Below are positions 32,615 through 47,066 of a DNA stretch of 64,000 nucleotides, piece after piece. A program made the translations under genes and the position numbers. The notes beneath the pieces were generated by a model that saw only the letters and a program-made list of their open reading frames with translations, searched no databases and was not told where the DNA came from. How positions within the stretch are numbered: the first letter of the stretch is position 1; every line of letters starts with the position of its first letter. This stretch comes from Cyanobium usitatum str. Tous (GTDB lineage Bacteria; Cyanobacteriota; Cyanobacteriia; PCC-6307; Cyanobiaceae), in assembly GCF_003011885.1 (NCBI RefSeq), contig NZ_PXXO01000011.1, positions 1 to 64,000 of the forward strand, given 5' to 3'.

Positions 32615-33049
32615 ATGGGGACAGGGGTGTTGGCCGAAAACAGGTTTGCCAGCGGGCATATTTGGAGAGTGGCTTGCTTAGCTGGCTTGGCGCTAACAGC
32701 CAGCTCTCTAGCGGCCACAGAAGCCGGCCAGGCGGCAGTGATGGGGGGAGCCCGCGCCCTTCCGTTGGGGGAGGCGGTGCAGCGCAGTCGGTTGGCAGCT
32801 GAAGCCGTGATCCAGCGACGCGGCAAGGAAACCTGCCTGCGCGGCAAGCTCACCAATGCCTTACTGGGCCTCTCTGCCAGCTGTGAAGTTGCCGCTCAGA
32901 AGGATGGTCTCTGTGCCCTGGCCGATCAGGCGGTGGTGCAGGTCGGCTGGTCGCTCGCTTTTATGGACAGCACTGCCCAGCAGGTGCTGAACCTGATCGA
33001 GAGCCAGCCGGGATCAGGATCGGGACCAGGATCAGGATCCAGGAATTAG
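32615..33049 (+). CDS. Putative secreted small cysteine protein A
   Basis: The product has 144 residues with a probable signal peptide (WRVACLAGLALTASSLAATEAGQA). The mature part has three cysteines (TCLRGK, SCEVAA, LCALAD) and ends in a Gly-Ser-Pro tail encoded by a hexanucleotide repeat. The 3' end overlaps the convergent secreted protein gene by 18 nt. The family is not recognised. Confidence 0.6.
   Translation: MGTGVLAENRFASGHIWRVACLAGLALTASSLAATEAGQAAVMGGARALPLGEAVQRSRLAAEAVIQRRGKETCLRGKLTNALLGLSASCEVAAQKDGLCALADQAVVQVGWSLAFMDSTAQQVLNLIESQPGSGSGPGSGSRN
33011..33040 (+). repeat. Five-copy GGATCA-like hexanucleotide repeat
   Basis: Five tandem hexamers (GGATCA, GGATCG, GGACCA, GGATCA, GGATCC) encode the Gly-Ser-Gly tail of the plus-strand gene and include the stop codon of the minus-strand gene. 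Length change in the repeat would alter both C-termini. Confidence 0.75.
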
Positions 33050-33457
33050 GTTGAACACACCTTTTTTCTCCTTGGGTTTGGTGTCGGTTTTGCTCGGGGC
33101 GACCGAGCGGGTCTGCTGTTTGCAGAAGGGGATCACGTCTTGGCCGGTTCGGTTGAGAGCTTCGCGCCTTTCAAAAGTGTTTGTGGTAGCTGGCTTTGCC
33201 CGTTCGAGGATTGTCCAGATGGCGTCCTTGCAGGTGGCGCCAAGGCGGGGGTGATCCATCAGCGGATCGGCCATGGTGCTTGCCTTGCCGCAGGCTTCAA
33301 TTGTGTTGTCTCTTCCGCAGGCGAAGGTTTGGAGCTGGAGCTCGCGCAACAGGTCCATGGATGGGTACGGCGGGTCCTTGGGTGCTGCCTGTAGGGGGGC
33401 AGCCAGCAGGGCGATCAGGCCAAGGGCAAGTGCGGGATCAATCCGAGGCGCGGCCAT
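33032..33457 (-). CDS. Putative secreted small cysteine protein B
   Basis: The product has 141 residues with an N-terminal signal peptide (ALALGLIALLAAPLQA). It has four cysteines in the mature part (TFACGR, EACGKA, ATCKDA, PFCKQQ) and a lysine-rich C-terminal third. The cysteine pattern suggests two disulfides in the periplasm. The family is not recognised. It follows the flavin monooxygenase gene by 31 nt on the same strand. Confidence 0.65.
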   Translation of the reverse strand: MAAPRIDPALALGLIALLAAPLQAAPKDPPYPSMDLLRELQLQTFACGRDNTIEACGKASTMADPLMDHPRLGATCKDAIWTILERAKPATTNTFERREALNRTGQDVIPFCKQQTRSVAPSKTDTKPKEKKGVFNLIPGS

Positions 33458-33488
33458 GGTTCCACCGGGGTTGCTCCCATCATGGCGG

Positions 33489-34706
33489 TCATGGCAGCTG
33501 GGCTAGCCCCTGACGCAGCGGCTGTTGCTGCTGGCTCCAGTGGGCAGCGATCGCGGGGCCCACAAGGGGTGCGGCGATCGCCAGAGCCCCCCGCAACCAA
33601 CCCTGCTGCCGCAACTGCTCTCCCCGGGCGGCTTCGGCAGCCTGCAGGGTTTGCATGCGGATGATTTCGGGCCGCCGCTCCGCCTCAATTTGGACGGCCA
33701 CCCCATCAAGGGCAGCGCCGCTGCAGCCACTGCTGAGCAGAGGCAACAACCGCATGGCGGCTACCCAGGCATCACGCAGGGCCATGTTGATGCCCTGGGC
33801 TCGCACCGGTCCCATCGGGTGGGCCGCATCGCCAAGCAGTAGCAGGCCCGGTTGGCACCAGCGCTCCGCTAGTCCCACCTGCACCGTCAGCCGGTTGGGC
33901 GCCCCCAATCCGCCGCGCCACTGCCGTAGCCAGGCCGCTAACTGAGGCGGACTCAAGGCTGCCATCCGCTCGATCCAGCCTTCTCTGCTGAGCTCTGGTG
34001 TGGCTTGAGACTTGCCTATAACCCAGCCCAGCTGCACGCCGCCGCTGGCGCTTTCGAAAGCGCTGAAAACCCCCTGGGGCCCCACCAGGGTGGTGAAGGA
34101 GCCAGCTAAGGGCGAGGCCGCGGGACTGGCCAGTTGAAACCAGAGCAAGTCGATCGGGCTGGGGCTGCTCTGCAGAGCTAGCCCTGCCTTCTGGCGCACC
34201 AGGGAGCCCCGGCCATCGCAGCCGACGACAAGGTCGGCAGGTAGCTGACTGCCATCGCGCAGTTGCACCCCCGCCACCCGCTCCTGCTGCCACAGCAGGT
34301 CAACCACCGGTTGGCCCCGCTCAATCGCAAAGGAGGGGTAGGTGCTGCCCCGTTTCAGCAGGGCCTCCAGCAGGGCGGGCTGGCTCACCAGGGTGCAGGG
34401 CCGGCTGGGATCACCGCCGAGGGGCTCGGTGGCGGTGAATAGCTCCTGGCCATTCACCACGAAGCGCCATTCCACCAGGGGCCGGTGGGGCAGGCCTGGA
34501 ATCAGCTCGAGCAGCCCCATGGCCGCTAGGGCCTCTAGCCCTGAGGGCATCAGCGCTTCGCCGCGGAATTGACGCTCCAGGTTGGTGCCGGCCTCCACCA
34601 GGGTTACGGCCATACCGCCACGGGCCAGCAGTAGGGCCAAGCTGGCCCCCGCCGGTCCGGCACCCACCACCACCACCTTGGTGCGGTGGCTCAAGGGGCC
34701 ACTCAA
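33489..34706 (-). CDS. FAD-dependent monooxygenase (UbiH/PHBH type)
   Basis: The product has 405 residues. GAGPAGASLALLLA (about 15-28) binds FAD ADP, GCDGRGS is the DG motif, and GDAAHPMGPVRAQGINMALRDA is the second FAD motif of aromatic hydroxylases. Its substrate is not evident; plastoquinone-related or secondary aromatic hydroxylation and halogenase-like relatives are possible. Its 5' end overlaps the stop of the small upstream gene by 4 nt. Confidence 0.88.
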   Translation of the reverse strand: MSGPLSHRTKVVVVGAGPAGASLALLLARGGMAVTLVEAGTNLERQFRGEALMPSGLEALAAMGLLELIPGLPHRPLVEWRFVVNGQELFTATEPLGGDPSRPCTLVSQPALLEALLKRGSTYPSFAIERGQPVVDLLWQQERVAGVQLRDGSQLPADLVVGCDGRGSLVRQKAGLALQSSPSPIDLLWFQLASPAASPLAGSFTTLVGPQGVFSAFESASGGVQLGWVIGKSQATPELSREGWIERMAALSPPQLAAWLRQWRGGLGAPNRLTVQVGLAERWCQPGLLLLGDAAHPMGPVRAQGINMALRDAWVAAMRLLPLLSSGCSGAALDGVAVQIEAERRPEIIRMQTLQAAEAARGEQLRQQGWLRGALAIAAPLVGPAIAAHWSQQQQPLRQGLAQLP

Positions 34707-34969
34707 ACGAAGGAGTTGTAGTTGCGAGTGGCGCCGCTCACCGGATCGACATGGCCCGTCAACTGGCTTTTCTTGCTGAGCAAATATTCCACCAGCTCCT
34801 GCTGAACGGCCAACAGTTCATTGGTGCAGCCGCGGAATGCGGCCCGGTGGCGTATTTCATCGTGCCGGGTGTGCAGGTCGCGCAGCATCAGCTGGATGGC
34901 ATCCAGGGTGGCCGACGTGTTGCGGGAGGCCGGCGGGGCATTCAAGGCACGCTCCGTTCCACTGACCAT
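34703..34969 (-). CDS. Small helical protein upstream of monooxygenase
   Basis: From the ATG at 34969 the product has 88 residues, mostly helical (ATLDAIQLMLRDLHTRHDEI, TNELLAVQQELVEYLLSKK) and soluble. It overlaps the monooxygenase start by 4 nt (ATGA), which implies cotranslation and perhaps a shared pathway. The family is not recognised. Confidence 0.65.
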   Translation of the reverse strand: MVSGTERALNAPPASRNTSATLDAIQLMLRDLHTRHDEIRHRAAFRGCTNELLAVQQELVEYLLSKKSQLTGHVDPVSGATRNYNSFV

Positions 34970-35031
34970 GGCCACAGCATTGAGGGGAAGGCCAAGCGTA
35001 GGAGGGGGGCCGCCTGGATCACGGCTCCCGA

Positions 35032-35427
35032 TCAGCAGTCGCCAAACAGGGTGCTGGACACCTGATGGAATGTTTCAAAGGTGTCTTGGTGGTCCAGCCC
35101 GCTCACCGCCAGGGAGACGGTCTGTTGGAAGGGGTTGCATTCCACCGCCAGGCTCACTGCCTTGGCGCCATGGTCGGCATGGAAAGCGGCGCTCTGGCCG
35201 TCAACGGCGTAGAGGGTTTCGGGGGCGTGGGTGAAGCCGAGCTGGTTGGCCAGCAGGCTGATGCCGGCGAGGGACTGGGCCAGGCTGCCGTCGCAGCGGA
35301 TGGCAGTGGTGTAGACCACCGGCGCAGCGGGGGTGGTGTCCTCACCCGGCAACACCAGGGAGCTCGCCAACGACTTCATCAGGCTGCCGGTCTTAGCCAA
35401 GCTGCCGGTCTTCACCAAGGTTTTCAT
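35032..35427 (-). CDS. Conserved protein with tandem KTGSL N-terminus
   Basis: The product has 131 residues. The N-terminus repeats KTGSLAKTGSLMKSL, encoded by an 18-nt tandem duplication. The rest is an alpha/beta domain (VVYTTAIRCDGS, GISLLANQLGFTHAPETLY, AVSLAVECNPF) with three cysteines. The family is not recognised. It is followed on the same strand by the 88-residue protein and the monooxygenase. Confidence 0.65.
   Translation of the reverse strand: MKTLVKTGSLAKTGSLMKSLASSLVLPGEDTTPAAPVVYTTAIRCDGSLAQSLAGISLLANQLGFTHAPETLYAVDGQSAAFHADHGAKAVSLAVECNPFQQTVSLAVSGLDHQDTFETFHQVSSTLFGDC
35381..35416 (-). repeat. 18-nt tandem duplication inside a gene
   Basis: Two adjacent 18-nt units sharing the core GCTGCCGGTCTT differ at three positions. 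They encode the repeated KTGSL segment at the N-terminus of the 131-residue protein. Confidence 0.7.
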
Positions 35428-35674
35428 CGGCGTCGTTGGCCATCCGAACAGTTGAACTTTAGGTGCAGATCGCTAGATGTGGTGCTTGGGGTTGCTAGAG
35501 GCCCACATATGGTGGGTGGAGCGCCCATACCCCGCTTTCCCGACTCAGCTGCGCTGAACCCAGCTCCATCAAGGGTTGATCTGTTGCGATTGCTGGCCCG
35601 GTCTGCTGCAGGGGCTCTGTTCTCGCGAGACGAGCGACCTTGCCCGTCCGACTCGGATCAAGGGGGTAGGACGT
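35428..35674. other. Intergenic region, 247 nt
   Basis: No gene is supported. One short inverted repeat (CCCAC / GTGGG with a 5-nt centre, 35502-35516) lies about 75 nt upstream of the 131-residue protein's start codon. Confidence 0.45.
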
Positions 35675-36788
35675 TTATTCCGATATTTCTTTGCTGACGA
35701 AGCAATTGCGACCCTTCGCTTTTGCCTCATAGAGCAACTTGTCAAGCTCTTGAATCACGTCTTCAAAAATGACTTTAACGCCAGAAGCGCAATAAAGTAT
35801 GCCTGCACTCATTAAGATCCCTTCGGGGAAATCAGAGGCTCGTTTCGCTTGGCTTCGGAGACCATCTTGAATGGCGCTGAGCCAACTTATGGTTTCATCG
35901 GGCAACTGCGAGGGAATGGCGATAACAAATTCGTCGCCGCCAAATCTTGCGGCAAATGCCTGATCTCCTAATTGCGCTGATAATGCAGCTCCAACCCGCT
36001 TCAGAGCCTCGTCTCCTCTTGCGTGTCCGTAGTTGTCATTGATCAACTTGAAGTTGTCAATGTCAATCATGATCAGGCTAATAGGCTCCGTTGCCTGAGT
36101 TTTTAGTCGCAATTTCTCGAACTGCTCAATGAATGCGTTTCTTCGCAGGCATCCGGTGAGCTCATCGATGTTGGCGCTGGCGTGCAAACGACTGTTTGCC
36201 TGTTTCAGGAGCTCAAGCTGACGCTCGAGTTGACGTCTTTCCCATGGATGGGCGTTGGCCGAATTGAGGTTGGTAGATACGGCTTCCTCGCTGAGGGCAT
36301 CCCGTTGGGCTTGGCCTGAGAGCTGGGCAACCATGCCTGTCACATCAATGGCTGTGCCATAGGTGCCGATCACCTCTCCATTCTGATTGCGACGGGATCG
36401 GGCGGTGTAGGCCAAAATGACCGGCTGACCATCAACACGTAAGTGCTTAGTGATGTGGTTGTTCACTGAGTCACCAGCTAGTAACCTCTGAAATATCTGG
36501 AGGTCGTAAAGTAATTGATCAGGGTCAACTCTTTCGGTAAAGAAACTACCTAGCAGGCCTTCGGGGGGCGATGCCGTAAATGGCATTGCACGCAGAGTTA
36601 AGGTATGACCATTTCCCTTCAATGTCGACCTCCCAGAATAGATCTGGATGGCTCTCTATCAGCTCTTGTGGGAAATTAAGATTTGACGCAAATTTGGGAA
36701 GATAATTATGGCTATTTTGGGGCGGGCAGGCCGTGCTTGCTAAATAGTTATTCCGAGAATCCTCAGGTGAAGTATCGGCGTCAGTCAT
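35675..36788 (-). pseudogene. PAS-GGDEF diguanylate cyclase, split by frameshift
   Basis: The upstream frame (ATG 36788) gives 80 residues ending NSACNAIYGIAP and then junk before a stop. The downstream frame continues exactly with PEGLLGSFFTERVDPD. Together they form one PAS domain, a linker helix and a GGDEF domain with an intact active site (RFGGDEFVIA) and DNFKLINDNYGHARGDE. The join is a run of six G at 36564-36569; five would restore a protein of about 370 residues. It may be a sequencing error, a recent mutation or a phase-variable tract. The downstream frame alone lacks the first half of PAS. If intact it would make c-di-GMP. Confidence 0.85.
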
Positions 36789-36882
36789 GTATTGATCTTT
36801 TTGTAAATGCTAGGGAATAGGCATCCGCTGGGGCCTCGGAGGCGTACTGTTAAAAATTAAATGCTCTGCATTTTTTGTGATT

Positions 36883-36911
36883 TTACGCCATTATGCATCG
36901 CCTTGGCGTAA
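36883..36911. repeat. 8-bp inverted repeat, 13-nt spacer
   Basis: TTACGCCA at 36883-36890 pairs with TGGCGTAA at 36904-36911. It is about 95-120 nt upstream of the diguanylate cyclase start codon and could be an operator or leader hairpin. Confidence 0.6.
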
Positions 36912-36929
36912 CGCGTAGTAAATCTTATG

Positions 36930-36987
36930 GCCAGGCATGGGTTATGGCTCTGAAGTGTTCTATGCAGTGCTTGCATAGAAGCCTGGC
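36930..36987. repeat. Nested inverted repeats (7-bp outer, 9-bp inner)
   Basis: The inner stem TTCTATGCA / TGCATAGAA (36958-36966 and 36972-36980) has a 5-nt loop. It is enclosed by GCCAGGC / GCCTGGC (36930-36936 and 36981-36987), the right arm directly abutting the inner stem. This would fold as an RNA with a bulged arm on either strand. Confidence 0.65.
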
Positions 36988-37133
36988 TTACAGTGTTATC
37001 GCTACATCTCAGCGATCCCCGTTCTCCCCTGAGTCAATATTTAGAACTGAGGTGGTGTGAGTTTGGCTTGAACCCGTCTCTGAATGCCGCTGCCCCGAAC
37101 AATTGCTTGTGCAACATTCCTTCAATGTATGGG

Positions 37134-37153
37134 CAATGAATTCAGGTTCATTG
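37134..37153 (-). other. Inverted repeat just after GH130 stop codon
   Basis: CAATGAA and TTCATTG form a 7-bp stem with a 6-nt loop, beginning one base after the stop codon of the last operon gene. No T tract follows, so it is a weak terminator candidate or an mRNA-stabilising 3' hairpin. Confidence 0.45.
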
Positions 37154-37154
37154 T

Positions 37155-38249
37155 TCATTCGCCGATGGGTAGGTGCCGATACCTCCAATTCTGGCTGGTG
37201 TCGCTGATCAGCAGATCAGCGAGCCCAAGTTCCACTACGCAGGTGGCGGTGTCAGCGGCTCCGGCGTAGATCAGCAGTGAATCCTCCTGTTGGATGATGC
37301 CAGTGGGGAACACCACATTTGGCACAAATCCCAGACATTCATACTCCATCTCTGGTGCCAAGATCTGCTCTCCTGCGCTGAGAATCTTCGAGGGCTGATC
37401 GAGATCCAAAAGCAGCTTTCCAGCCCCATAGCTGCCGATGCCGCTTTCACCTTCGCCCTTATCGTTGCCGTGATATATCACCAACCATCCCTCCCTTGTG
37501 CGGATCGGTGGTGTGCCCGCGCCGATGCGGCCGCAATCCCAGCCTGCACTAGAGCCCAGCAGGGGCTGGTGCTTGCCCCAATGCAGTAGATCGGGTGATG
37601 AGGCCAGCCAAATCTCCGGACGGGAAAAATCATGGGCAGTGGTGGGCCGATGCAGCGCGAAATACTGGCCGCCGATACGCTCAGGGAACAGCACCACATC
37701 CTTGTTTTCCGGGCAGAAGATCGGCCCGTGGAACTTGAAGGAGCTGAAATCAAGTGTAGAGGCCAAGGCTGTTGCCGCACCGTGGGGGGATACGGCTACA
37801 TAGGTGATATAAAAATGACCATCAATTGGCGTGATGCGGGGATCCTCGATGCCATAGCTCTCACAGCCGAGGCTGGGCCGGAGGATTTGCTGCTCACTGG
37901 GCTCGATCTGGCGCCCGTTAGCGCTGCGAACTACGCGCAGATGGGAGGTGGAAGTGAGTCGCAGCAGGCCCGTTTCCTTGATCTTCACCACCCTGGCATC
38001 TTCAACAATCAGTTCCTGCTCAGCCAGCCAGTCGATAACTATTTTTCCTGCCTCCAGATCCCAGTGCGGCAAACCCACGAAACCCGGCCGGATCTGCCGA
38101 GGCGCCTCGGCCACCCTGATCAGAAGCACAACTCCCTGCTCCGTTGTGACGGCGCCTGGATTGAAGGCGCCAACAACCCGCATGTCTTGCTGAGAAGGGG
38201 CAAGCTGCCCAGGGGTCAGCAGGCAGCTGCTAAATAAACGGGGTCTCAT
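37155..38249 (-). CDS. GH130 glycoside phosphorylase, short form
   Basis: The product has 364 residues forming a five-bladed beta-propeller of family GH130. The putative catalytic acid is D136 in the GIEDPRI motif. FPERIGGQYFALHRPTT carries the His-Arg pair expected near the phosphate site, and GAGTPPIRTREGWLVIYHG and GFVPNVVFPTG are further family motifs. GH130 members cleave beta-mannosides (1,4- or 1,2-linked) with phosphate, giving mannose-1-phosphate. It is the last gene of a four-gene operon and overlaps the oxidoreductase by 4 nt. The substrate cannot be fixed from sequence. Confidence 0.85.
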   Translation of the reverse strand: MRPRLFSSCLLTPGQLAPSQQDMRVVGAFNPGAVTTEQGVVLLIRVAEAPRQIRPGFVGLPHWDLEAGKIVIDWLAEQELIVEDARVVKIKETGLLRLTSTSHLRVVRSANGRQIEPSEQQILRPSLGCESYGIEDPRITPIDGHFYITYVAVSPHGAATALASTLDFSSFKFHGPIFCPENKDVVLFPERIGGQYFALHRPTTAHDFSRPEIWLASSPDLLHWGKHQPLLGSSAGWDCGRIGAGTPPIRTREGWLVIYHGNDKGEGESGIGSYGAGKLLLDLDQPSKILSAGEQILAPEMEYECLGFVPNVVFPTGIIQQEDSLLIYAGAADTATCVVELGLADLLISDTSQNWRYRHLPIGE

Positions 38250-39358
38250 CCGCCAGGCTCAGCTAGCCGGGTTGCCGCGCAGGCCATGGCAAGGGAGTTG
38301 CGGCCATTCTCCTCAGTGATCAGCCGTTGATGGGAACGATCGGCAATCCAGGCGATCTGGTCTACGAACAGTGCCCGCAGCAGCTCGCAATAGCGGCGCA
38401 TCTTCTCGGCCTCCAATCCAGCATGAAGATCGATCTTCTGATAGGTGTCAAAGTCTTTGTGGCGTCCTCGGGCTAGGCGCCTAGAGCCGCTATAGCTTTC
38501 GAGAACATCAAGCCTGGCGCCAGGGAAGATCTGCATCAACCTGCGCGATTGCTCTTCATCCACTACGGCCCGCAGCCGCACCCGAGTAGGTACCCATTCC
38601 TCCAGGGTCAATTCACCGTGTTCAAATAACAGCCTGAATTCCTGGCGCTCAAGCCGTGCCGGCTGGGTGAAGCCGTGATAGAAGTTTATTAGGGCACCAT
38701 TGCCGTAGCGCACCACGCACTGCACCTGCTCCTCAATGCCGGAGCCTGGGCGCAGAGTCCGCTGGGAGGAGACAACCTCTCCCTTCCCCAGCCAACCTTC
38801 GAATAGATCAAAGAAATGTACGCCATGTTCAATGAAGATGCCGCCACTTTTGGTGCGATCCCAGAACCAATGCTCGGCTGAAAGCCCCTCATCGCCGGCG
38901 GCATTGTCAAACCAGCCATGCAGGCACTCGCCGATCACCTTGGAATCGATCAGTTGGCGCACGGCCTCAAACAGCGGGTTGTAGCGCTGCATCAGGTTGG
39001 CGATGCAGAGGCGATCGCTGGAGCGGGCCAGCTGCAACAGCTCATCAGCCTGGGCCAGGCTTAGCGCCAGTGGCTTTTCGCAAATCACATGCTTGCCTGC
39101 CTCCAGGGCTGCACGCACCTGGCCGTAATGGAGGAAGGGCGGCGTGGCGATGTAAACAAGGTCAACCTGATCAAGTTGGAGCAGGCTCTCCACATCGAGG
39201 GTTTCAGCAATTCCAAAACGGCGGGCCATGGCGAGGGCCGCCTCTCGATGGGTGCCAGCCATCGCCACCAGCTCCGCCCCCTCAACTTGTAGAAACTGTT
39301 GGAGAGCAAATAGGCCAAACCCACCCGCTCCAATGGCGCCGATGCGGATCTTATTCAT
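38246..39358 (-). CDS. Gfo/Idh/MocA family oxidoreductase
   Basis: The product has 370 residues. The N-terminal NAD(P) site GAIGAGGFG (about 8-15), the EKPLALSLAQADEL motif near residue 95 with the catalytic lysine, and the C-terminal substrate domain with EHGVHFFDLFEGWLG are typical of the family. Members oxidise or reduce sugars, inositols and sugar nucleotides. Here it overlaps both neighbours by 4 nt, so its substrate is likely a sugar handled by the glycosyltransferase or the phosphorylases. Confidence 0.88.
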   Translation of the reverse strand: MNKIRIGAIGAGGFGLFALQQFLQVEGAELVAMAGTHREAALAMARRFGIAETLDVESLLQLDQVDLVYIATPPFLHYGQVRAALEAGKHVICEKPLALSLAQADELLQLARSSDRLCIANLMQRYNPLFEAVRQLIDSKVIGECLHGWFDNAAGDEGLSAEHWFWDRTKSGGIFIEHGVHFFDLFEGWLGKGEVVSSQRTLRPGSGIEEQVQCVVRYGNGALINFYHGFTQPARLERQEFRLLFEHGELTLEEWVPTRVRLRAVVDEEQSRRLMQIFPGARLDVLESYSGSRRLARGRHKDFDTYQKIDLHAGLEAEKMRRYCELLRALFVDQIAWIADRSHQRLITEENGRNSLAMACAATRLAEPGG

Positions 39359-41625
39359 GGCTTGGGGATTGAATGGCGAGCGAGTTCGATTAGTCGCATC
39401 TCCTGCAGAGCCAGGAGGAAGGCCAGGGTTGATTCGGCACCTTGGTTCATGTTTACGCTGTCGTCTTGAAGGCCATCGAAACAGCCGCCAGTGCGTGCGT
39501 CATAGAGCGGCAGGTGCAGGTCGTTGTCGCCTAGGAACCAGGCAAAGGCTCGCCAGGCCTCGCGCAGCCAGAAGCTATCGCCCGTAGCTGACCAGGCCTC
39601 AACGCAAGCCGACACTGAAGCGCAGGCCTCCAGTGGTTGCTGGTCGAAGGTGGCCCGCTGCTGGCCTCGGCGGTAGAAGCCATTGGAACCAATTGGCCTG
39701 AAATGGCCAGCTTCAGCGGTTTGCTCTGCCATCAACCAGCGCAGACTGCGCAGACCCACATCAAGGGCTTCGCTTCGATTCGACCAGCGGCCACTGAGGA
39801 TCAGGGCGTGCGGCAGGGAAGCATTGTCGTAACTCAGCACATCCTCAAACCAGGGCCATTCATCACCGGAGTTTTGATCGAAGGCCACCAGTAACTGATC
39901 GGTGAGGGTATCGCGCATCAGATCGACGGTTCGATCACCACTCAGCTTGCGCAGATACTCATGAATAGCCTTGAGTCCAAGGGCCCAGGCCCGTGGACTC
40001 GTTGTTTTGGTGACCGAGGGCAGCGCCAGCTGAAACAGATCCACTGCCCAGTGGCGCAAATCATCGCGGCGGGATCTGCCTACACAGGCAGCCAGGGCTA
40101 GCAAGGTGCGGCCCAGGCAATCATCGGAGCCATCCTCATCGAGCCAGGTGCGCTCGAAGCTCATGAAGTTATGAAATCGGCAAGTTCCTGGGATGTAGGC
40201 ATAGTTAATAAACGATGCATAACAAGTAGCCAGTGCTTGTACATCGGGCGTGGCATCGCCCGATTCTTCGAGCATTACAAGTAATTGCAGCGCGCGAACA
40301 TTGTCATCCGTGCAATATCCTTCCTTGAAATTGGGAAATGTGAATTTGGCGTGCTGATAAACACCTGTTGAATCCGAGATTCTCTTCAGATGCTCAAGCC
40401 TTAAGGCCGGCAGCTCGCGCGGTTCCTGCTCCAGAGGCTTGATTGGGGAGTGCAGCACCACTCCGTTGCCACGCTCTAGCCTGGCTCGCTCAAAAGAGTT
40501 GGCATAAAGTTCAGCTACCTGGCTCCAGATCATGCCCCTACCCAGTAGGTAGGCCTGCTTGCGCATGGCATGTCTACGCACTTCATCGATCAACAAACCG
40601 ATCAGGGCTTCGGCAATTGCATCACTGTTGCGAAAGGGCACTAACACGCCCCGGTCTTCAGCAAGCAGCTCTTCTGCGTGCCAGTAGGGAGTGGAGATCA
40701 CCGCCTTGCCGCAACCGAAGGCATAGGAGAGGGTGCCAGAGGTGATCTGATCACGGTTGAGATAGGGAGTGATATAAATATCCGCAACACCAAGAAAATC
40801 TTTAAGCTCTTCAGCGCTCACAAAGCGGTTATAGAAGATCACCTGCTTTCTCACCCCAAGCTCAAGGGCAAGCCTCTCAAGGCTTAAGCGATAGGTTTCG
40901 CCCTGCTCTCGTAGCAGATGGGGATGGGTGGCACCCAATACGATATAGACGACCTCGGGGAACACCTTGACCACCTCAGGTAAGGCCCGGATAACGTTTT
41001 CTATTCCCTTGGCTGGCGAGATCAGCCCAAAGGTAAGAAGAACTTTTTTGCCCTCAACACCAAACTGATCTTTGTAATAGTTGGGATCTACAAACGGCAT
41101 GTCTGGCACGCCATGGGGGATCACATCTAGATGATCTGCTTGCAACCCGTAGATTTCCTCAAGAATTCGGCGCCCCCGTTCACTCATCACAATGATCCGT
41201 GCTGAAAGTGCGGCGAGCTCCTTCATCACATGCAGATGTTCGGCGCTGGGCTCCTCCAGGATCGTATGGAGTTGGGTAACCACAGGGATATGGACGTGGC
41301 GTAAAAGTGTGAGGATATGCTTGCCAGCTGGGCCGCCATAGATGCCAAACTCGTGCTGGAGGCAGATGACATCAGTGTCGGTGAGATTCAGGAAATCGGC
41401 AGCGCGGCGATAGCTGCTCAAATCCTGCTCCGCAATCTCAAAACGAACTTCCGGTGGATAGGCGTAGCCTTCGGGAACGTCGTTTACCGCAACGATGAAG
41501 CATTCGTTGTCGGCTGCGTCGTCGGAGAGAGCTCGATAAACCGAGTGGGAGAAGGTGGCGATCCCACATTTCCTTGGCAGATAGTCGCCAATGATTGCAA
41601 TTTTTCGAGTAGATCTTGGCTTCAA
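39355..41625 (-). CDS. GT4 glycosyltransferase fused to alpha/alpha-toroid domain
   Basis: The product has 756 residues. Residues 1-400 form a GT-B glycosyltransferase of family 4 type: GDYLPRKCGIATF at the N-terminus, CLQHEFGIYGG, ISPAKGIENVIRALPEV and the donor-site region YRDQ-like ITPYLNRDQITSGTLSYAFGCGKAVIST. From about 415 a helical region with GYCTDDNVRAL, YASFINYAYIPG, ASLPHALILSG and NMNQGAESTLAFLLAL resembles six-hairpin (alpha/alpha)6 glycosidases. The two activities may build and trim the same glycoside. It is the second gene of the operon. Confidence 0.83.
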   Translation of the reverse strand: MKPRSTRKIAIIGDYLPRKCGIATFSHSVYRALSDDAADNECFIVAVNDVPEGYAYPPEVRFEIAEQDLSSYRRAADFLNLTDTDVICLQHEFGIYGGPAGKHILTLLRHVHIPVVTQLHTILEEPSAEHLHVMKELAALSARIIVMSERGRRILEEIYGLQADHLDVIPHGVPDMPFVDPNYYKDQFGVEGKKVLLTFGLISPAKGIENVIRALPEVVKVFPEVVYIVLGATHPHLLREQGETYRLSLERLALELGVRKQVIFYNRFVSAEELKDFLGVADIYITPYLNRDQITSGTLSYAFGCGKAVISTPYWHAEELLAEDRGVLVPFRNSDAIAEALIGLLIDEVRRHAMRKQAYLLGRGMIWSQVAELYANSFERARLERGNGVVLHSPIKPLEQEPRELPALRLEHLKRISDSTGVYQHAKFTFPNFKEGYCTDDNVRALQLLVMLEESGDATPDVQALATCYASFINYAYIPGTCRFHNFMSFERTWLDEDGSDDCLGRTLLALAACVGRSRRDDLRHWAVDLFQLALPSVTKTTSPRAWALGLKAIHEYLRKLSGDRTVDLMRDTLTDQLLVAFDQNSGDEWPWFEDVLSYDNASLPHALILSGRWSNRSEALDVGLRSLRWLMAEQTAEAGHFRPIGSNGFYRRGQQRATFDQQPLEACASVSACVEAWSATGDSFWLREAWRAFAWFLGDNDLHLPLYDARTGGCFDGLQDDSVNMNQGAESTLAFLLALQEMRLIELARHSIPKP

Positions 41626-43094
41626 GGATATTTCTCCAGTGGGTTGGCCTTCAATTTTCGCAATAACTCATCAACGGATACGGTGGCAAAAGTGGCTGAC
41701 TGATCGCTCATGGCGTAAGGTATGATCAGCTTATCGGCATGGATTAGTGATCCGCAACTATAGACAACATTCGGAACATATCCCTCTCTCTCCTCCTTGG
41801 TTGGCTCCAGCAGGGGCTCCTTGAGGCGGCCGATCACTTGGCTGGGATCGTTAATGTCGAGTAGAATCGCGCCTATGGTGTATCTACGCATTGGTCCAAC
41901 GCCATGGGTTAGTACCAGCCAGCCGGCATCGGTTTCGATAGGCGAGCCACAGTTGCCAATCTGAACGAACTCCCAGGGGTAGGTGGGCCGCATCAAAATA
42001 CGCTTTTCGTACCAGAAGTGCAGCTGATCTGAATACATCAGGTAGATATTCTCTCCATCCTGCCTGGAAAGCATGGCGTACGAGCCTCCCAGTTTCCTTG
42101 GGAATAGGGCCATGCCCTTATTTGCCACTTCAGGGCCGTTTAAGGTGCTTATCTTGAACTGGGTGAAGTCTTTAGTTTCCAGCAGCTGGGGGAAGACAAG
42201 CTGACCGTCATAGGCGCTATAGGTCGCATAATAGGTAGTCTGCCCGTTTTCCTCAAAAGCAACAAATCGAGCATCTTCAATGCCACGACTTTCGGTGGGA
42301 GAGGTGGGGAAGATAGCTCGCTCTGAGCAATCATCACCTGGGTCGAAGCTGAGCTCGTAGTTTGCGCGTGCCAGCGATAGTACGCTCTCCGCTATATGCA
42401 TGCTGTCTGTATTGGCGAGACGGTCACTGCGCAGGGCCTGGTTGGTTAACTCCTTGAGTTCCTCAAAGCTGAAAAAATCAGGCAGCTGATCCATCAGCCG
42501 CTGAGCAAGATGCGTAAGCAAGCCCATTTCAACAAGCTTTCGCTCGAAAAGATGCTTTTCATAGCTTGGGTTTGGATGCACATCAGCAGCTGCCACAAAG
42601 GGGCTCGGCTGATCGAGGGCGATGCCTCCCTCTCGGTTGATAACGCCAGTGCGAAAAACAATTGAGGAGATATGGCCTTCGCCCGTCGCCCGTAGGCTTA
42701 GGAGAAAGCGCATGCTGCCTTCATCGATTCCCGATTGATCCGGATGCCGCACGATTGACGGATTGAAGAGAGCCGCCGCTTCAAGGGAATATTCCAGCGT
42801 GAAATAGGCACCGATCAGCAGCCTTTCGCAGCGGTTTAGGGGCCGATCGGTGATCAGATGCTCGCTCACATGTCCGAAACGAGTGAGCAGAAAGGCCTGC
42901 AACTTTTCATGGCGGCCTTCAAAGCTCTTCAGCATGATTGTGGCTTCGCGCTCCGCCTCGGAGCGGCTTAGGGCCATGACCCGAGCAACAATTCGTTGAA
43001 TGCGTTCCCTGCCACTCGTTTCGAAGGCCCTTAAAAACACCCGCGAAGGGTCCGGTCGAATTTGAATATTTGTTCTGTTGACCTGAAGTGACAT
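41622..43094 (-). CDS. GH130 glycoside phosphorylase, long form
   Basis: The product has 490 residues. An N-terminal helical extension of about 110 residues precedes the GH130 propeller. Motifs are RGIEDARFVAFEENG (putative catalytic Asp), YAMLSRQDGENIYLMYSD, GNCGSPIETDAGWLVLTHGVGPMRRY and GYVPNVVYSCG. Where the short form has LHRP this one has LSRQDGEN, so the phosphate site may differ and hydrolysis is not excluded. It is the first gene of the operon, with 350 nt of non-coding sequence upstream. Confidence 0.84.
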   Translation of the reverse strand: MSLQVNRTNIQIRPDPSRVFLRAFETSGRERIQRIVARVMALSRSEAEREATIMLKSFEGRHEKLQAFLLTRFGHVSEHLITDRPLNRCERLLIGAYFTLEYSLEAAALFNPSIVRHPDQSGIDEGSMRFLLSLRATGEGHISSIVFRTGVINREGGIALDQPSPFVAAADVHPNPSYEKHLFERKLVEMGLLTHLAQRLMDQLPDFFSFEELKELTNQALRSDRLANTDSMHIAESVLSLARANYELSFDPGDDCSERAIFPTSPTESRGIEDARFVAFEENGQTTYYATYSAYDGQLVFPQLLETKDFTQFKISTLNGPEVANKGMALFPRKLGGSYAMLSRQDGENIYLMYSDQLHFWYEKRILMRPTYPWEFVQIGNCGSPIETDAGWLVLTHGVGPMRRYTIGAILLDINDPSQVIGRLKEPLLEPTKEEREGYVPNVVYSCGSLIHADKLIIPYAMSDQSATFATVSVDELLRKLKANPLEKYP

Positions 43095-43447
43095 GGTTTA
43101 TAGCCTGCCTAAGGGATCAAAAATGCTAGAAATAAAAAGTCGGGTTAAAAGCAAGAATATTGTTGCCTTTGTGTTTGGTACCCGTTCAGGCCTGGATTAC
43201 TGCTGCGAATATTTGCCTTGCTGCACCCTAGATGCTGGCTTCAATTTTGGTTGCATTTCAGGTAAAAAGTATTCGCGATATGTTCCCTTGATGCTGCGAT
43301 TTCAGCGACAGACTCACTTGCGACTCCAGTAGTCGTCCTTGCCTTGAGTTCGGCTTAGCTACTGCAGAACGAGTAACCCCTCCGCAGGGTCATCCAGGCG
43401 CTGGTCAGGAGCTGCTGCCGAGCGAGCTTGGTGTTGTTTCCAATGAA
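43095..43447. other. Upstream region of the GH130 operon
   Basis: About 350 nt with no supported gene. A TATAAA sequence lies 4 nt before the operon's ATG on the minus strand, too near to be a usual -10 for that start. The promoter must be further up. A weak plus-strand frame at 43093-43332 has no coding character. Confidence 0.4.
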
Positions 43448-44827
43448 TCACGCTTCCCCCCTTTGCACCCCGCTGCCGCAGCGGGTGCGTTGCCGTTCTT
43501 GCTTGCGGGCCAGCCGCTCGGTGATGCCGAGCTCAGCGCCTTTCCAGAGCCGATTGATCTCAGAGGTGAAGTGCTCGGCTAGCAGGGGGGACTCAAACAC
43601 CAGCAGGGTTTCGTCGTTCTGGTGGGCGGCTGAGGGGCTCCAGTTGAAGGAGCCGGTGATCACGGTGCGGTTGTCGATGACAGCCAGCTTGTGGTGGAGT
43701 TTGTCGCCGCTGGCCAGGCGTGGTGTGCCGACACTTTCCAGGGGGCGCTGCCAGGGGCGGTTCGCCGCTTCCACGCCGCAACGGTGATCGGGCAGTTGGG
43801 TGCCGAGCAGATCGAGCACTTCGCTGAAGGCGCGGTTTGCAAAGCCGGGATCGGCCAGTAGGCGGATGGTTACCCCCTGCCCCTGCAGGCGGGCCATGGC
43901 ATCGGCCAGCCGTTGTTCAGAGAGTACGAATAGGGCGAGATCCAGCTGCTTGCGGCTGCCGGAGAGCAACTTCTCCAATAGCAGCAGGCCCTGGTGGGGA
44001 TCGCTGCGGCGATGGGGCGCGAACAGCACCGTCACCGGCGTTGCCCCCACCAGCAACTTTTGGGGAGCTCCGCCGCCCTTGCCCAGCCCAAAGCGGCTGT
44101 CGGGCTGGCCGCCGGGGCCGTCGCCCCACATCCGCTCAAACTCGGCCAGAAAGGAGTTGGCCAGTTCACGGCTGCGCAGACGCAGCAGGTGATTGACGTT
44201 GCCGCGGCTGCGGTCTGCCCCCGGATCGCCGTGGATGCAGGAGGGGGTGAAATTGGCTGAGCCGGTCACCACCACGGCCCGGTCCACCACCATGAATTTG
44301 TGGTGCATGAGGCCACTGCCGGCGCTGCCATCTGCGGTGTCATCGATCAGGGGCACGCCGGCCCGCTGCAGGATTGCCACAGCGTCTCCCCAACCGAGGG
44401 CCTTGAGCTGCTCATGGCGTGTGCGCTGGTGTGGGGCCAGATCCGCCGGATGTTCTTCGCTCCAGGGGCTGCTGTAGGTGTTTTCCAGCACCACCTTCAC
44501 CGTCAGCCCCTCGCGGTGCTTAGCCGCCAGCGCTTCGGCCAGCTTCGGCAGCGACAGCTCCTGCACCGCTACCAGGATTTCCCGCCGCGCCGACTGAATA
44601 CTTGCCAGCACGAAAGCCTCGAGATCATCGCCCTGACGCCATTGACCGGTGATAGGGCTGCGGTAGCGGCTGGTTTCAGCGTGGTTGAAGGCCAGCTCGA
44701 TGCCCTTGGGCAGGGGCTTGGGCCGGGCTGACTGGCCAAGGAGCTGGGCGTCAGCGCTGCAGCCAGCTAAAGCCAAGCCCACAAGGCTTGCCCAGGCGAA
44801 GGGGTGGCGCGGCGAAAGGTTGGCCAT
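43448..44827 (-). CDS. Phospholipase D-family lipoprotein
   Basis: From the ATG at 44827 the product has 459 residues with a lipobox ending at C23 (LALAGCSAD). Two HKD motifs are complete: HHKFMVVD with GSANFT in the first half and HHKLAVID with GSFNWS in the second. This is the twin-site PLD fold of cardiolipin synthases, nucleases and phospholipases. The lipoprotein signal places it in the periplasm or outer membrane, which favours a lipase or nuclease role over cardiolipin synthase, which is normally anchored by N-terminal helices. Confidence 0.88.
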   Translation of the reverse strand: MANLSPRHPFAWASLVGLALAGCSADAQLLGQSARPKPLPKGIELAFNHAETSRYRSPITGQWRQGDDLEAFVLASIQSARREILVAVQELSLPKLAEALAAKHREGLTVKVVLENTYSSPWSEEHPADLAPHQRTRHEQLKALGWGDAVAILQRAGVPLIDDTADGSAGSGLMHHKFMVVDRAVVVTGSANFTPSCIHGDPGADRSRGNVNHLLRLRSRELANSFLAEFERMWGDGPGGQPDSRFGLGKGGGAPQKLLVGATPVTVLFAPHRRSDPHQGLLLLEKLLSGSRKQLDLALFVLSEQRLADAMARLQGQGVTIRLLADPGFANRAFSEVLDLLGTQLPDHRCGVEAANRPWQRPLESVGTPRLASGDKLHHKLAVIDNRTVITGSFNWSPSAAHQNDETLLVFESPLLAEHFTSEINRLWKGAELGITERLARKQERQRTRCGSGVQRGEA

Positions 44828-44884
44828 GGCAGCCCTGGGCGGTTGTACCCAGGGTTCCCACATTGGATCAAGCTGGGGCTTTAT

Positions 44885-45085
44885 CTAGTGGTGGCCCGGC
44901 ATCTCGGCGGTGCGCAGCATCACCACGAACCAACCAGTACCAATCAACACAGCGCTGAGCATGGCGGCTGGCAGGCCGAAGCGCATCAACACAACCGGCA
45001 CAATCAGCGGAAATGCCAAGGCTCCTGCCACCGGTGTGAGGGCGACGGCTGAGCGCTTCAGCGCCAAGGCTCGATTTAGAACCAT
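44885..45085 (-). CDS. Small two-helix membrane protein
   Basis: The product has 66 residues with a basic N-terminus and two hydrophobic helices (AGALAFPLIVPVVLM and AMLSAVLIGTGWFVVML). It overlaps the end of the DUF4912 gene by 10 nt and so is likely cotranscribed with it. The family is not recognised. Confidence 0.65.
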   Translation of the reverse strand: MVLNRALALKRSAVALTPVAGALAFPLIVPVVLMRFGLPAAMLSAVLIGTGWFVVMLRTAEMPGHH

Positions 45086-46149
45086 TCGCTTACGGCCTTT
45101 TCGGCTGGGTTGCTGTTGTCCTCAGGGGTAGAGCGGCTGAATTCCAGGGTGATGTTGCGCTTCTGCTCGCCATCGGCGGCGACCGCCTCGATCGGATAAA
45201 GCTGCTGACCATCGCGGAAGGGCACTTGCACCCGGAAGGTGCCATCGGCGGAAAGGGGCACCTCCTCACCGCCAATGGTGAGGCGGGCAGCGGGATCGGT
45301 GGCCCCATAGACAATCAGCTCAGCATCAGCCACAAGCCAGAACGAGCGTTGACGGGAGGCGACCCCGCCGATGCCAGAGGCGTTGCGGCCACTGGCCCAG
45401 ATGCCGGCACCAGAGGTGTTGAGTTCACTGGTGTCCAGGCCGGCTGCGTGTAGCTCATGAAAAGCCTCAGAACCCCTGCCAAGACTGCGCCAGCGGGCTG
45501 TAGCTGTTTGATATAGGCGTTCGTGTAGTCCTGCATCGGCTGGCTCCACCGGCGTCGGCAGGATGGCTGGAGCCGTGTCCAGCGAAAAGGGCACGAACTG
45601 GTCGAGAATTTGCTCGCTGGGGTGCTGGGCGGGTACCCGTGCCACTGAAGAGAAGGCCAGGGAGATCCAGCCGCCGCTGCCTTTGCGGTAGCCGAGTTCC
45701 ACCCGGTAATCCCGATCGCACAGGGGCACTGGCAGATACCACTCGGTGGCATGGCTGTCGACCACCACTTCCTGCAGGGTGTGGGGGTGGGCTGAGCCGC
45801 CCGGCAGGCCAGTCACGTCGGCGACGCGCAGGCAAAGCTGGGAGGCACCAGTTGCCAGGGCTGAGGCCCGATCGCTTTGGGAGATATCCCAGAACACATA
45901 GGCCCACTGGGGATCGCGGGGCAGAAATACGACGCTGGTATTTGCTGAGCTGGGTCGGGGAGCTGGGGGTAGCTCTGCTTCGATTGCCTTGAGACTGATG
46001 GGCGTGTCCTCCTCATCCTGGCGATCATTGATGGCGGCTAGGAGTTCATCCTTGGACTTACGGCTGTACAAGCCCACCCCAAGGTCCCTAGCGACCTGGC
46101 GAAGCTGACGCAGGGTCATGCGTGCCAATGCGGTGAATGCCTGCGTCAC
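45076..46149 (-). CDS. DUF4912-domain protein with SAP/Rho-N-like N-terminus
   Basis: The product has 357 residues. The N-terminal LRQLRQVARDLGVGLYSRKSKDELL resembles a Rho-N/SAP helix-extended-loop-helix. The DUF4912 core (VFLPRDPQWAYVFWDIS, then RVADVTGLPG and YLPVPLCDRDYRVELGYR) follows at about 70-170. The C-terminal part (LIVYGATDPAARLTIGGEEVPLSADGTFRV) looks like a beta-sandwich. Function unknown. Confidence 0.82.
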   Translation of the reverse strand: MTQAFTALARMTLRQLRQVARDLGVGLYSRKSKDELLAAINDRQDEEDTPISLKAIEAELPPAPRPSSANTSVVFLPRDPQWAYVFWDISQSDRASALATGASQLCLRVADVTGLPGGSAHPHTLQEVVVDSHATEWYLPVPLCDRDYRVELGYRKGSGGWISLAFSSVARVPAQHPSEQILDQFVPFSLDTAPAILPTPVEPADAGLHERLYQTATARWRSLGRGSEAFHELHAAGLDTSELNTSGAGIWASGRNASGIGGVASRQRSFWLVADAELIVYGATDPAARLTIGGEEVPLSADGTFRVQVPFRDGQQLYPIEAVAADGEQKRNITLEFSRSTPEDNSNPAEKAVSEWF

Positions 46150-46304: not shown

Positions 46305-47066
46305 TCAGCGGCCGATGCTGCGGTACGGAACCTTGGACAGATAGTCCATGCTGACGCTGCCGGATGCACCGCCTTGGCTGCGCATGGCAGGCAGATTGCG
46401 CACCCAGGGGAGGTAGTCCTCGGGGAAGCCGCCACGGCGCTGACGGGAGCGAGCGGGGATCGTTTTGGCGGTGCCGGTGTACACAACTTGGGGGAAGCCC
46501 AAGATGCCGCGGTAATAGGCCTCGTATCGCGGAGTGGTGATGTTGAAGGGGGTTTCGCCCAGATCGCGGGAGCCCACCACGCGGTTGCGGTGGAAGGGAA
46601 CGGTGTCGTAACCGAAGGCGTCCAGGTATTCTTGGCCGTTGAGGATGTCGTCAACCATGCCCTTGACCCCGCGGGTCATCAGCACGGCCGCCCAGGCGAT
46701 CTCCTCAGACCTGCCGTGGGTGGGGCGACCCAGCAGCTTTTCCACCAGGTGGCGCACCACTCGGTAATTGCTGTTCAGGTTGTAGAAGCTGCGGGTGAAG
46801 GTGTCTGAGAGACACAGGGAGCGAATGAAATCCCGCACACTCATTTGGCCGTTGCGCAGCTGGCTCTCCAATGTCGAGTTGCGGTCGACCTTGAAGGCAT
46901 AAAAGAAAATCTGTCGATAACACGACTCAATGACCAGATTTAGGTCTTTGGGATCCATTGCCCTGTCCATGGACATGGGTTTGGGGTCCTCATCCGAACC
47001 CACCCGAAGCGGGTCAACCCGCGAGTTTTGGGTAGTGGGCGCGTATTTCAGGAGGGGCAGGGCCAC
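46305..47066 (-). CDS. cpcG: Phycobilisome rod-core linker polypeptide
   Basis: The product has 253 residues from a GTG start. MALPLLKYAPTTQNSRV is the typical CpcG N-terminus. The PBS linker domain (about 40-190) has ESCYRQIFFYAFKVDR, LRNGQMSVRDFIRSL and DTFTRSFYNL, and the C-terminal part contacts the core. It joins phycocyanin rods to the allophycocyanin core. The gene has its own terminator and about 90 nt of upstream space for a promoter. No other phycobilisome structural gene is in the window. Confidence 0.95.
   Translation of the reverse strand: MALPLLKYAPTTQNSRVDPLRVGSDEDPKPMSMDRAMDPKDLNLVIESCYRQIFFYAFKVDRNSTLESQLRNGQMSVRDFIRSLCLSDTFTRSFYNLNSNYRVVRHLVEKLLGRPTHGRSEEIAWAAVLMTRGVKGMVDDILNGQEYLDAFGYDTVPFHRNRVVGSRDLGETPFNITTPRYEAYYRGILGFPQVVYTGTAKTIPARSRQRRGGFPEDYLPWVRNLPAMRSQGGASGSVSMDYLSKVPYRSIGR

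What the first reader, a model, noticed from the sequence alone, without database searches (positions are those of the whole stretch)
37155..43094. Four-gene GH130 / GT4-toroid / oxidoreductase / GH130 operon
All three junctions are 4-nt ATGA overlaps, so the genes are tightly coupled. Two different GH130 enzymes flank a glycosyltransferase and a sugar oxidoreductase. GH130 enzymes release mannose-1-phosphate from beta-mannosides, so the set could make and phosphorolytically recycle a mannoside or related glycan. No sugar uptake transporter is present, which argues for an internal solute or reserve glycan. The block is more AT-rich than its flanks, which suggests acquisition. The pathway as a whole is inference.
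Basis: partly seen in the sequence, partly recalled or inferred. Interest (0 to 1): 0.72.

Follow-up and report, generated by a model that had tools for sequence, protein, structure and literature searches.

The report
Mobile mannose-recycling operon in a cyanobacterium
A picocyanobacterium has picked up, as one inserted block, four linked genes that probably build and recycle an internal mannose-containing sugar; the core gene pair is found in at least ten bacterial phyla and one archaeon, and I found no paper describing what it does.

Summary
The four genes are real and exactly placed. All three junctions overlap by 4 nt, but only two are ATGA; the third is TTGA. The same four genes in the same order occur in four other Cyanobiaceae-type genomes, with different flanks from the window's. 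Here they sit in a ~7.9 kb insertion (about 35,557-43,462) that close relatives lack; a GGDEF gene came with them. The core pair, a GT4-toroid glycosyltransferase plus a GH130, is an uncharacterised module: a GH130 lies near the GT in 76 of the 80 best homologues across at least ten bacterial phyla plus a Lokiarchaeon. In alphaproteobacteria the pair sits with mannose-6-phosphate isomerase, mannose-1-phosphate guanylyltransferase and phosphomannomutase, which ties it to mannose.

GH130S has every checked residue of a beta-1,2-mannoside phosphorylase and is sister to characterised ones. GH130L is a separate deep subfamily: it keeps the catalytic Asp and the beta-1,2 Lys, but carries Gln at one phosphate-site position and has extra helical regions. 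The GT domain lacks the usual GT4 donor residues in all 89 members aligned.

Best reading: cytosolic synthesis and phosphorolytic recycling of a beta-1,2-mannoside, as reserve or solute. The product, its acceptor and the oxidoreductase's role are inferred, not shown.

The parts
41622..43094 (-). GH130L: long GH130 protein (490 aa), deep uncharacterised subfamily with an N-terminal helical region (~1-97) and a helical insert (~180-243) around a five-bladed propeller
   Evidence: PF04041 107.6 bits; AF2 pLDDT 91.9, best PDB match Teth514_1788 1,2-beta-oligomannan phosphorylase E 6e-21; own clade 100/100
39355..41625 (-). GT4-toroid: GT-B glycosyltransferase of family 4 fused to an all-helical toroid-like domain (~411-750); TTG start
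   Evidence: PF00534 68.9 bits; AF2 pLDDT 86.9; Foldseek MshA/PimA and YPO2471
38246..39358 (-). GFO/IDH/MocA-family oxidoreductase, substrate unknown
   Evidence: PF01408 101 bits, PF22725 58.8 bits; nearest solved relative 1,5-anhydro-D-fructose reductase 76 bits
37155..38249 (-). GH130S: probable beta-1,2-mannoside phosphorylase (364 aa)
   Evidence: PF04041 170 bits; nearest solved Lin0857 beta-1,2-mannobiose phosphorylase E 4e-70; checked active-site residues intact
35675..36622 (-). GGDEF (diguanylate cyclase) protein inside the same insertion; not part of the four-gene operon
   Evidence: PF00990 111.7 bits; lies within the insertion
35557..43462 (.). Insertion carrying the operon (boundaries approximate, a few tens of bases)
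   Evidence: Window 33,027-35,407 and 43,464-45,500 align to relatives with only ~142-145 bp between them; junction sequences

Best explanation
The block is a horizontally moved, cytosolic beta-mannoside module. The GT4-toroid transfers mannose (most likely from GDP-mannose, which this cell can make) to build a mannoside. The two GH130 enzymes, acting on beta-1,2-mannosidic bonds of different chain length or acceptor, shorten it with phosphate to give alpha-mannose-1-phosphate, which feeds back to GDP-mannose or to fructose-6-phosphate. The oxidoreductase, paired with GH130S, probably oxidises or reduces the acceptor or reducing-end sugar. The product would act as a reserve or solute, working like Leishmania mannogen with a different set of enzymes. 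Shown: gene set, order, insertion, residues, phylogeny, mannose-gene association in relatives. Inferred: reactions, direction, product and physiological role.
For: GT4-toroid and a GH130 occur together in 76 of 80 top homologues, 71-72 directly downstream on the same strand; two of the four exceptions are contig ends. No other family recurs beside them apart from a second small GT4 with its own GH130. In alphaproteobacteria the pair is flanked by class I mannose-6-phosphate isomerase, mannose-1-phosphate guanylyltransferase and phosphomannomutase. This genome encodes GMP_PMI, 695 bits. The beta-1,2 lysine of Cuskin et al. (PMC4599007) is present in GH130L 51/51 and GH130S 10/11. GH130S is sister to Lin0857/Uhgb_MS (99/95). 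GH130L's nearest solved relatives by sequence and fold are Teth514_1788 and Teth514_1789. None of the four N-termini looks like a signal peptide (by eye), and the insertion has no transporter. The four-gene order recurs in four other genomes.
Against: GH130L has Gln where phosphorylases have Lys/Arg in 34 of 50 members, the window's included, so it may not be phosphate-dependent. The GT domain lacks the Arg and EX7E residues of GT4 donor sites in all 89 members, so GDP-mannose is not certain. A retaining GT4 would be expected to make alpha-bonds, whereas GH130 acts on beta-bonds, so GT and GH130 may not handle the same bond. No product, expression or activity data exist. The literature library held no report of the module, and that library is incomplete.
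Confidence: 0.58

Rival explanations
1. Catabolic salvage: the operon degrades imported or scavenged beta-1,2-mannosides to mannose-1-phosphate for GDP-mannose, as proposed for Thermoanaerobacter.
For: Closest characterised GH130S relatives and their neighbours are catabolic: ABC transporter, LacI and DUF1861 genes beside GH130S homologues; the Thermoanaerobacter cluster has GH130 x2, GMP, GT4 and an ABC importer (PMC4264767).
Against: No importer or extracellular hydrolase in the block, and none as a recurrent neighbour in the 80 loci from other phyla; a glycosyltransferase is the near-invariant partner, which fits synthesis better.
Confidence: 0.15
2. The products are made, not cleaved, by the GH130s: GH130S/GH130L run in the synthetic direction from mannose-1-phosphate, and GT4-toroid supplies or extends the primer, so the block builds a cell-surface or storage beta-mannan.
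For: Uhgb_MS, annotated 'mannoside synthase', lies in the sister clade of GH130S; GH130 phosphorolysis is reversible (PMC4264767); GMP/PMM/PMI neighbours supply mannose-1-phosphate.
Against: Cytosolic phosphate normally favours phosphorolysis (general knowledge); no polymer export or membrane genes nearby.
Confidence: 0.15
3. Mannosyl-acceptor solute: GT4-toroid makes a single mannosyl conjugate (e.g. of an inositol, anhydro-hexitol or glycerate), the oxidoreductase makes its acceptor and the GH130s recycle it.
For: Oxidoreductase is contiguous with the rest in five cyanobacteria and paired with GH130S in an Isosphaeraceae genome with a 4-nt overlap; nearest solved relatives are anhydrofructose reductase and inositol dehydrogenases.
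Against: Oxidoreductase is absent from nearly all other GT4-toroid loci, so it is not needed for the core; similarity to those enzymes is weak (<= 76 bits).
Confidence: 0.09
4. Non-functional relic: acquired island with no current role.
For: Patchy (6 of 251 family genomes) and one broken copy elsewhere (L107).
Against: All four genes intact with conserved active-site residues in the window and in three of the other four genomes; L104 has a stop codon in GH130L.
Confidence: 0.03

Closest known systems
Thermoanaerobacter GH130 cluster (Teth514_1785-1796; [quoted passage not shown]
   Same: Two GH130 enzymes with beta-1,2 marker residues beside a GT4; link to GDP-mannose (PMC4264767)
   Different: There: ABC importer, GH5 and GMP in the cluster, simple GT4, no oxidoreductase. 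Here: GT4 fused to a helical toroid, long GH130L subfamily, oxidoreductase, no importer
Leishmania mannogen system (GT108 mannosyltransferase/phosphorylases)
   Same: Would work alike: beta-1,2-mannose polymer built and phosphorolysed inside the cell; propeller fold (PMC8950772)
   Different: GH130L and GH130S belong to GH130, not GT108: 6q50 is only a remote fold match of GH130L (E 1.8e-5) and gave no sequence hit
Lin0857 beta-1,2-mannobiose phosphorylase / Uhgb_MS
   Same: GH130S is sister to this clade and keeps the checked active-site residues
   Different: Below the NCBIfam equivalog cut-off (327.5 of 550 bits); neighbours here are a GT4-toroid and an oxidoreductase instead of sugar importers
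PimA / MshA (GT4)
   Same: GT-B fold and GT4 Pfam domains
   Different: Arg and EX7E donor-site residues replaced in all 89 members; extra helical domain

Membership tests
GH130 (GH130S) | PF04041 above gathering score | tested here: met
   170.4 bits vs 26
GH130 (GH130S) | Catalytic Asp, -1 Asn, phosphate-site Arg/Lys/His, beta-1,2 Lys | tested here: met
   N31, D141, K188, R206, R246, H265 (Lin0857 numbering) all matched; assignment of the phosphate residues partly from memory
NCBIfam NF050092 beta-1,2-mannobiose phosphorylase (GH130S) | Score above the equivalog cut-off | tested here: not met
   327.5 of 550 bits
GH130 (GH130L) | PF04041 above gathering score and five-bladed propeller | tested here: met
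   107.6 bits; Foldseek to Teth514_1788 TMt 0.77, E 6e-21
GH130 phosphorylase (GH130L) | Basic phosphate-binding residues | tested here: inconclusive
   R206 and H265 kept; position 246 is Gln in 34, Lys in 16 of 50
GH130 beta-1,2-mannosidase (BT3780 type) | Two Glu in place of the phosphate-binding residues | tested here: not met
   No Glu at the aligned positions 206 and 246 in either protein (feature from PMC4599007)
GT108 (mannogen enzymes) | Sequence or close fold similarity to Leishmania MTPs | tested here: not met
   No sequence hit for either GH130; for GH130L 6q50 ranks 46th, E 1.8e-5
GT4 | Glycos_transf_1 domain and GT-B fold | tested here: met
   68.9 bits vs 26.4; MshA/PimA fold matches
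GT4 | EX7E motif and donor-site Arg (typical, not universal, in GT4) | tested here: not met
   Gln293 and Leu201 in 89/89, Tyr301 in 82/89, aligned to PimA
Gfo/Idh/MocA oxidoreductase | PF01408 plus C-terminal domain | tested here: met
   101.4 and 58.8 bits
Thermoanaerobacter-type GDP-mannose salvage cluster | Sugar importer and GMP gene in the cluster | tested here: not met
   Neither in the insertion; GMP_PMI is elsewhere in the genome
Beta-mannoside phosphorolysis | Release of mannose-1-phosphate | not testable with these tools
   Needs enzyme assay

The most novel reading that the evidence does not exclude
GT4-toroid plus GH130L/GH130 is a widespread, undescribed prokaryotic counterpart of mannogen: an internal beta-1,2-mannan or mannosyl-solute cycle in at least ten bacterial phyla and a Lokiarchaeon. 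Its glycosyltransferase has a rebuilt donor site and may use mannose-1-phosphate directly, so that GT and GH130 exchange mannose-1-phosphate without a nucleotide sugar.
Probability: 0.2. Interest if true: 0.82.

Novelty: new variant of a known kind. Interest (0 to 1): 0.56.

Why it matters
GH130 is studied mostly as a glycan-degrading family of gut bacteria. A conserved glycosyltransferase-GH130 unit across many phyla suggests a common internal mannose reserve or solute that has gone unnoticed, and it names a small testable gene set. Its movement as one block into a picocyanobacterium suggests it works as a self-contained unit. GH130L is a separate, uncharacterised branch of the family with an altered phosphate site, and the GT4-toroid has a donor site unlike the solved GT4 enzymes compared, so both would extend enzyme knowledge.

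Tried and rejected
GT108 membership for GH130L: rejected by sequence and fold. Hydrolase (BT3780 type): rejected, the Glu pair is absent. Phage carriage: one partial 24% match only. Insertion by an obvious mobile element: no flanking repeats of note, integrase or tRNA seen. RNA element or riboswitch: none at the gathering threshold in 30-50 kb. Sigma-70 promoter and terminator scans gave no more than chance. Search for other recurrent neighbours found mainly shadow ORFs.
Full report
OBSERVATION. Order of transcription is GH130L (490 aa), GT4-toroid (756 aa), GFO/IDH/MocA oxidoreductase (370 aa), GH130S (364 aa). Each junction overlaps by 4 nt. Two are ATGA; the GH130L/GT junction is TTGA because the GT starts with TTG. 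Pfam supports all four family names above the curated cut-offs. The operon is 55.6% GC in a 61.7% window, and the lowest 5.94-kb stretches of the window are here. The host is a cyanobacterium: a phycobilisome linker gene lies at 46305-47066. These are the only two GH130 genes in its genome.

THE BLOCK IS AN INSERTION. The gene upstream of the operon (PLD, 43448-44863) and the FAD-dependent oxidoreductase gene at 33489-34706 are present, whole or in part, in all 16 genomes searched in the genus. In most relatives where both lie on one contig they are 0.4-0.85 kb apart; in the window they are 8.7 kb apart. Pairwise alignment with G442, G376 and G239 leaves only ~142-145 bp between the matching ends, where the window has ~8.06 kb. 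Reading the junction sequences places the insertion at about 35,557-43,462. It carries the operon and one GGDEF gene. GC of the block is below that of the flanks in all five genomes that carry it.

THE FOUR GENES TRAVEL TOGETHER. In the family, 6 of 251 genomes have GH130L. Four besides the window carry the same four genes in the same order at 71-92% protein identity, and none shares the window's flanks; G453 and G393 look alike in their flanks. The closest relatives by the two flanking genes (G442, G376, G239) lack the block, so transfer is the simplest reading. In one of the four (L104), GH130L has an in-frame stop. A sixth genome (G506) has a different, broken version (L107).

THE CORE PAIR IS WIDESPREAD. 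In 76 of 80 a GH130 lies near the GT, in 71-72 of them immediately downstream on the same strand. Two of the four exceptions are contig ends. The partner is either GH130L (~485 aa) or a shorter GH130 (~320 aa). A second unit, a small GT4 with its own GH130, often follows. In the phylum sample of cyanobacteria GT4-toroid was found in 2 of 292 genomes. On the GT tree the five cyanobacterial proteins form one clade (SH-aLRT 100), inside a supported set of 19 rows with Planctomycetota, Verrucomicrobiota, Bacteroidota and Ignavibacteriota, next to the planctomycetes that also carry GH130S. The Isosphaeraceae locus L068 has all four genes, arranged as two convergent pairs: GT4-toroid/GH130L and oxidoreductase/GH130S. 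The cyanobacterial operon thus looks like two pairs joined (inference).

LINK TO MANNOSE. In alphaproteobacterial plasmids the GT4-toroid/GH130L pair has class I mannose-6-phosphate isomerase just upstream in Devosia, Sphingomonas bisphenolicum and Sinorhizobium, mannose-1-phosphate guanylyltransferase/isomerase upstream in two sphingomonads and phosphomannomutase downstream in one. Rhizobium plasmids have an AGE-family epimerase downstream. The window's genome encodes a full GMP_PMI (695 bits), so it can probably make mannose-6-phosphate and GDP-mannose.

GH130 ACTIVE SITES. I aligned 51 GH130L, 11 GH130S-type and 25 short partner proteins with printed segments of characterised enzymes. The catalytic Asp, the -1 Asn and the Arg and His flanking the phosphate site are kept in all three groups. 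The lysine that Cuskin et al. tie to beta-1,2 specificity (BT3780 Lys199, PMC4599007) is present in 51/51, 10/11 and 25/25. The assignment of that residue to the NK motif, and of the phosphate residues, rests on alignment and partly on memory of GH130 structures. At Lin0857 position 246 GH130S has Arg, as in phosphorylases; GH130L has Gln in 34 and Lys in 16 of 50. GH130L also has Gly for Asp189 and Ser/Gly for His205. GH130S is sister to the Lin0857/Uhgb_MS clade (99/95), while GH130L forms its own long branch (100/100) outside all characterised rows used. The AF2 model of GH130L (pLDDT 91.9) is a propeller with a helical N-terminus and a helical insert; its best solved match is Teth514_1788.

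GT4-TOROID. The model (pLDDT 86.9, pTM 0.57, so domain placement is uncertain) shows a GT-B domain and an all-helical domain; the best solved matches are MshA and PimA for the first and YPO2471 for the second (assignment of YPO2471 to the helical domain follows the sequence match at 669-749). Against PimA the donor-site Arg is Leu in 89/89, and the EX7E motif reads Gln-X7-Tyr (Gln 89/89, Tyr 82/89). The small GT4 partner keeps the usual motif. So the donor is not settled, although genomic context favours mannose.

OXIDOREDUCTASE. Typical GFO/IDH/MocA protein; nearest solved relatives are anhydrofructose reductases, sugar 3-ketoreductases and inositol dehydrogenases, all weak. Of four planctomycete genomes tested, only the one with the four-gene set has a close homologue. 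Its role is open.

MECHANISM. Most likely an internal mannoside is built by the GT and taken apart by the two GH130s with phosphate, returning mannose-1-phosphate; the oxidoreductase would act on the acceptor. No importer, secreted enzyme or export gene travels with the block, which favours an internal product. It would work like Leishmania mannogen but is not a member of GT108. The nearest described gene cluster is in Thermoanaerobacter (PMC4264767), proposed for salvage and containing an importer. Text searches found no paper describing GT4-toroid/GH130 units; the library is incomplete.

LIMITS. No activity, expression or metabolite data. Characterised GH130 rows in the tree are partial. Best-80 selection favours relatives close to the query, so the 76/80 figure describes these, not all homologues. 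The GT tree is a quick one (SH-aLRT only), and several distant rows have long branches.

Noticed in passing
window 35675-36622; L103:12740-14788: A GGDEF gene lies in the same insertion as the operon, and a CHASE-PAS-GGDEF gene sits beside the block in G453 and G393, so diguanylate cyclase genes neighbour it in two separate sites.
   Followed up: partly
L107 (G506 contig 15, 1-14000): A separate GT4-toroid/GH130L copy (55% and 43-62% identity) that is truncated or frame-broken, apparently an independent acquisition.
   Followed up: partly
L007, L133, L006: In sphingomonads and Devosia the pair sits on plasmids beside chaperone genes (GroEL/ES, DnaK/GrpE) or cytochrome bd genes, which hints at a stress role.
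   Followed up: no
L129, L130: In Rhizobium plasmids the pair is followed by an AGE-family epimerase/isomerase, possibly a mannose isomerase.
   Followed up: no
L016, L022, L030, L038, L005: A second unit, small GT4 plus a GH130 with Arg at the beta-1,2 marker (as in beta-1,4 enzymes), accompanies the core pair; it may act on another linkage.
   Followed up: partly
window 45076-46149: DUF4912 / Rho_N-domain protein near the insertion site, shared with relatives that lack the insertion; function unknown.
   Followed up: no
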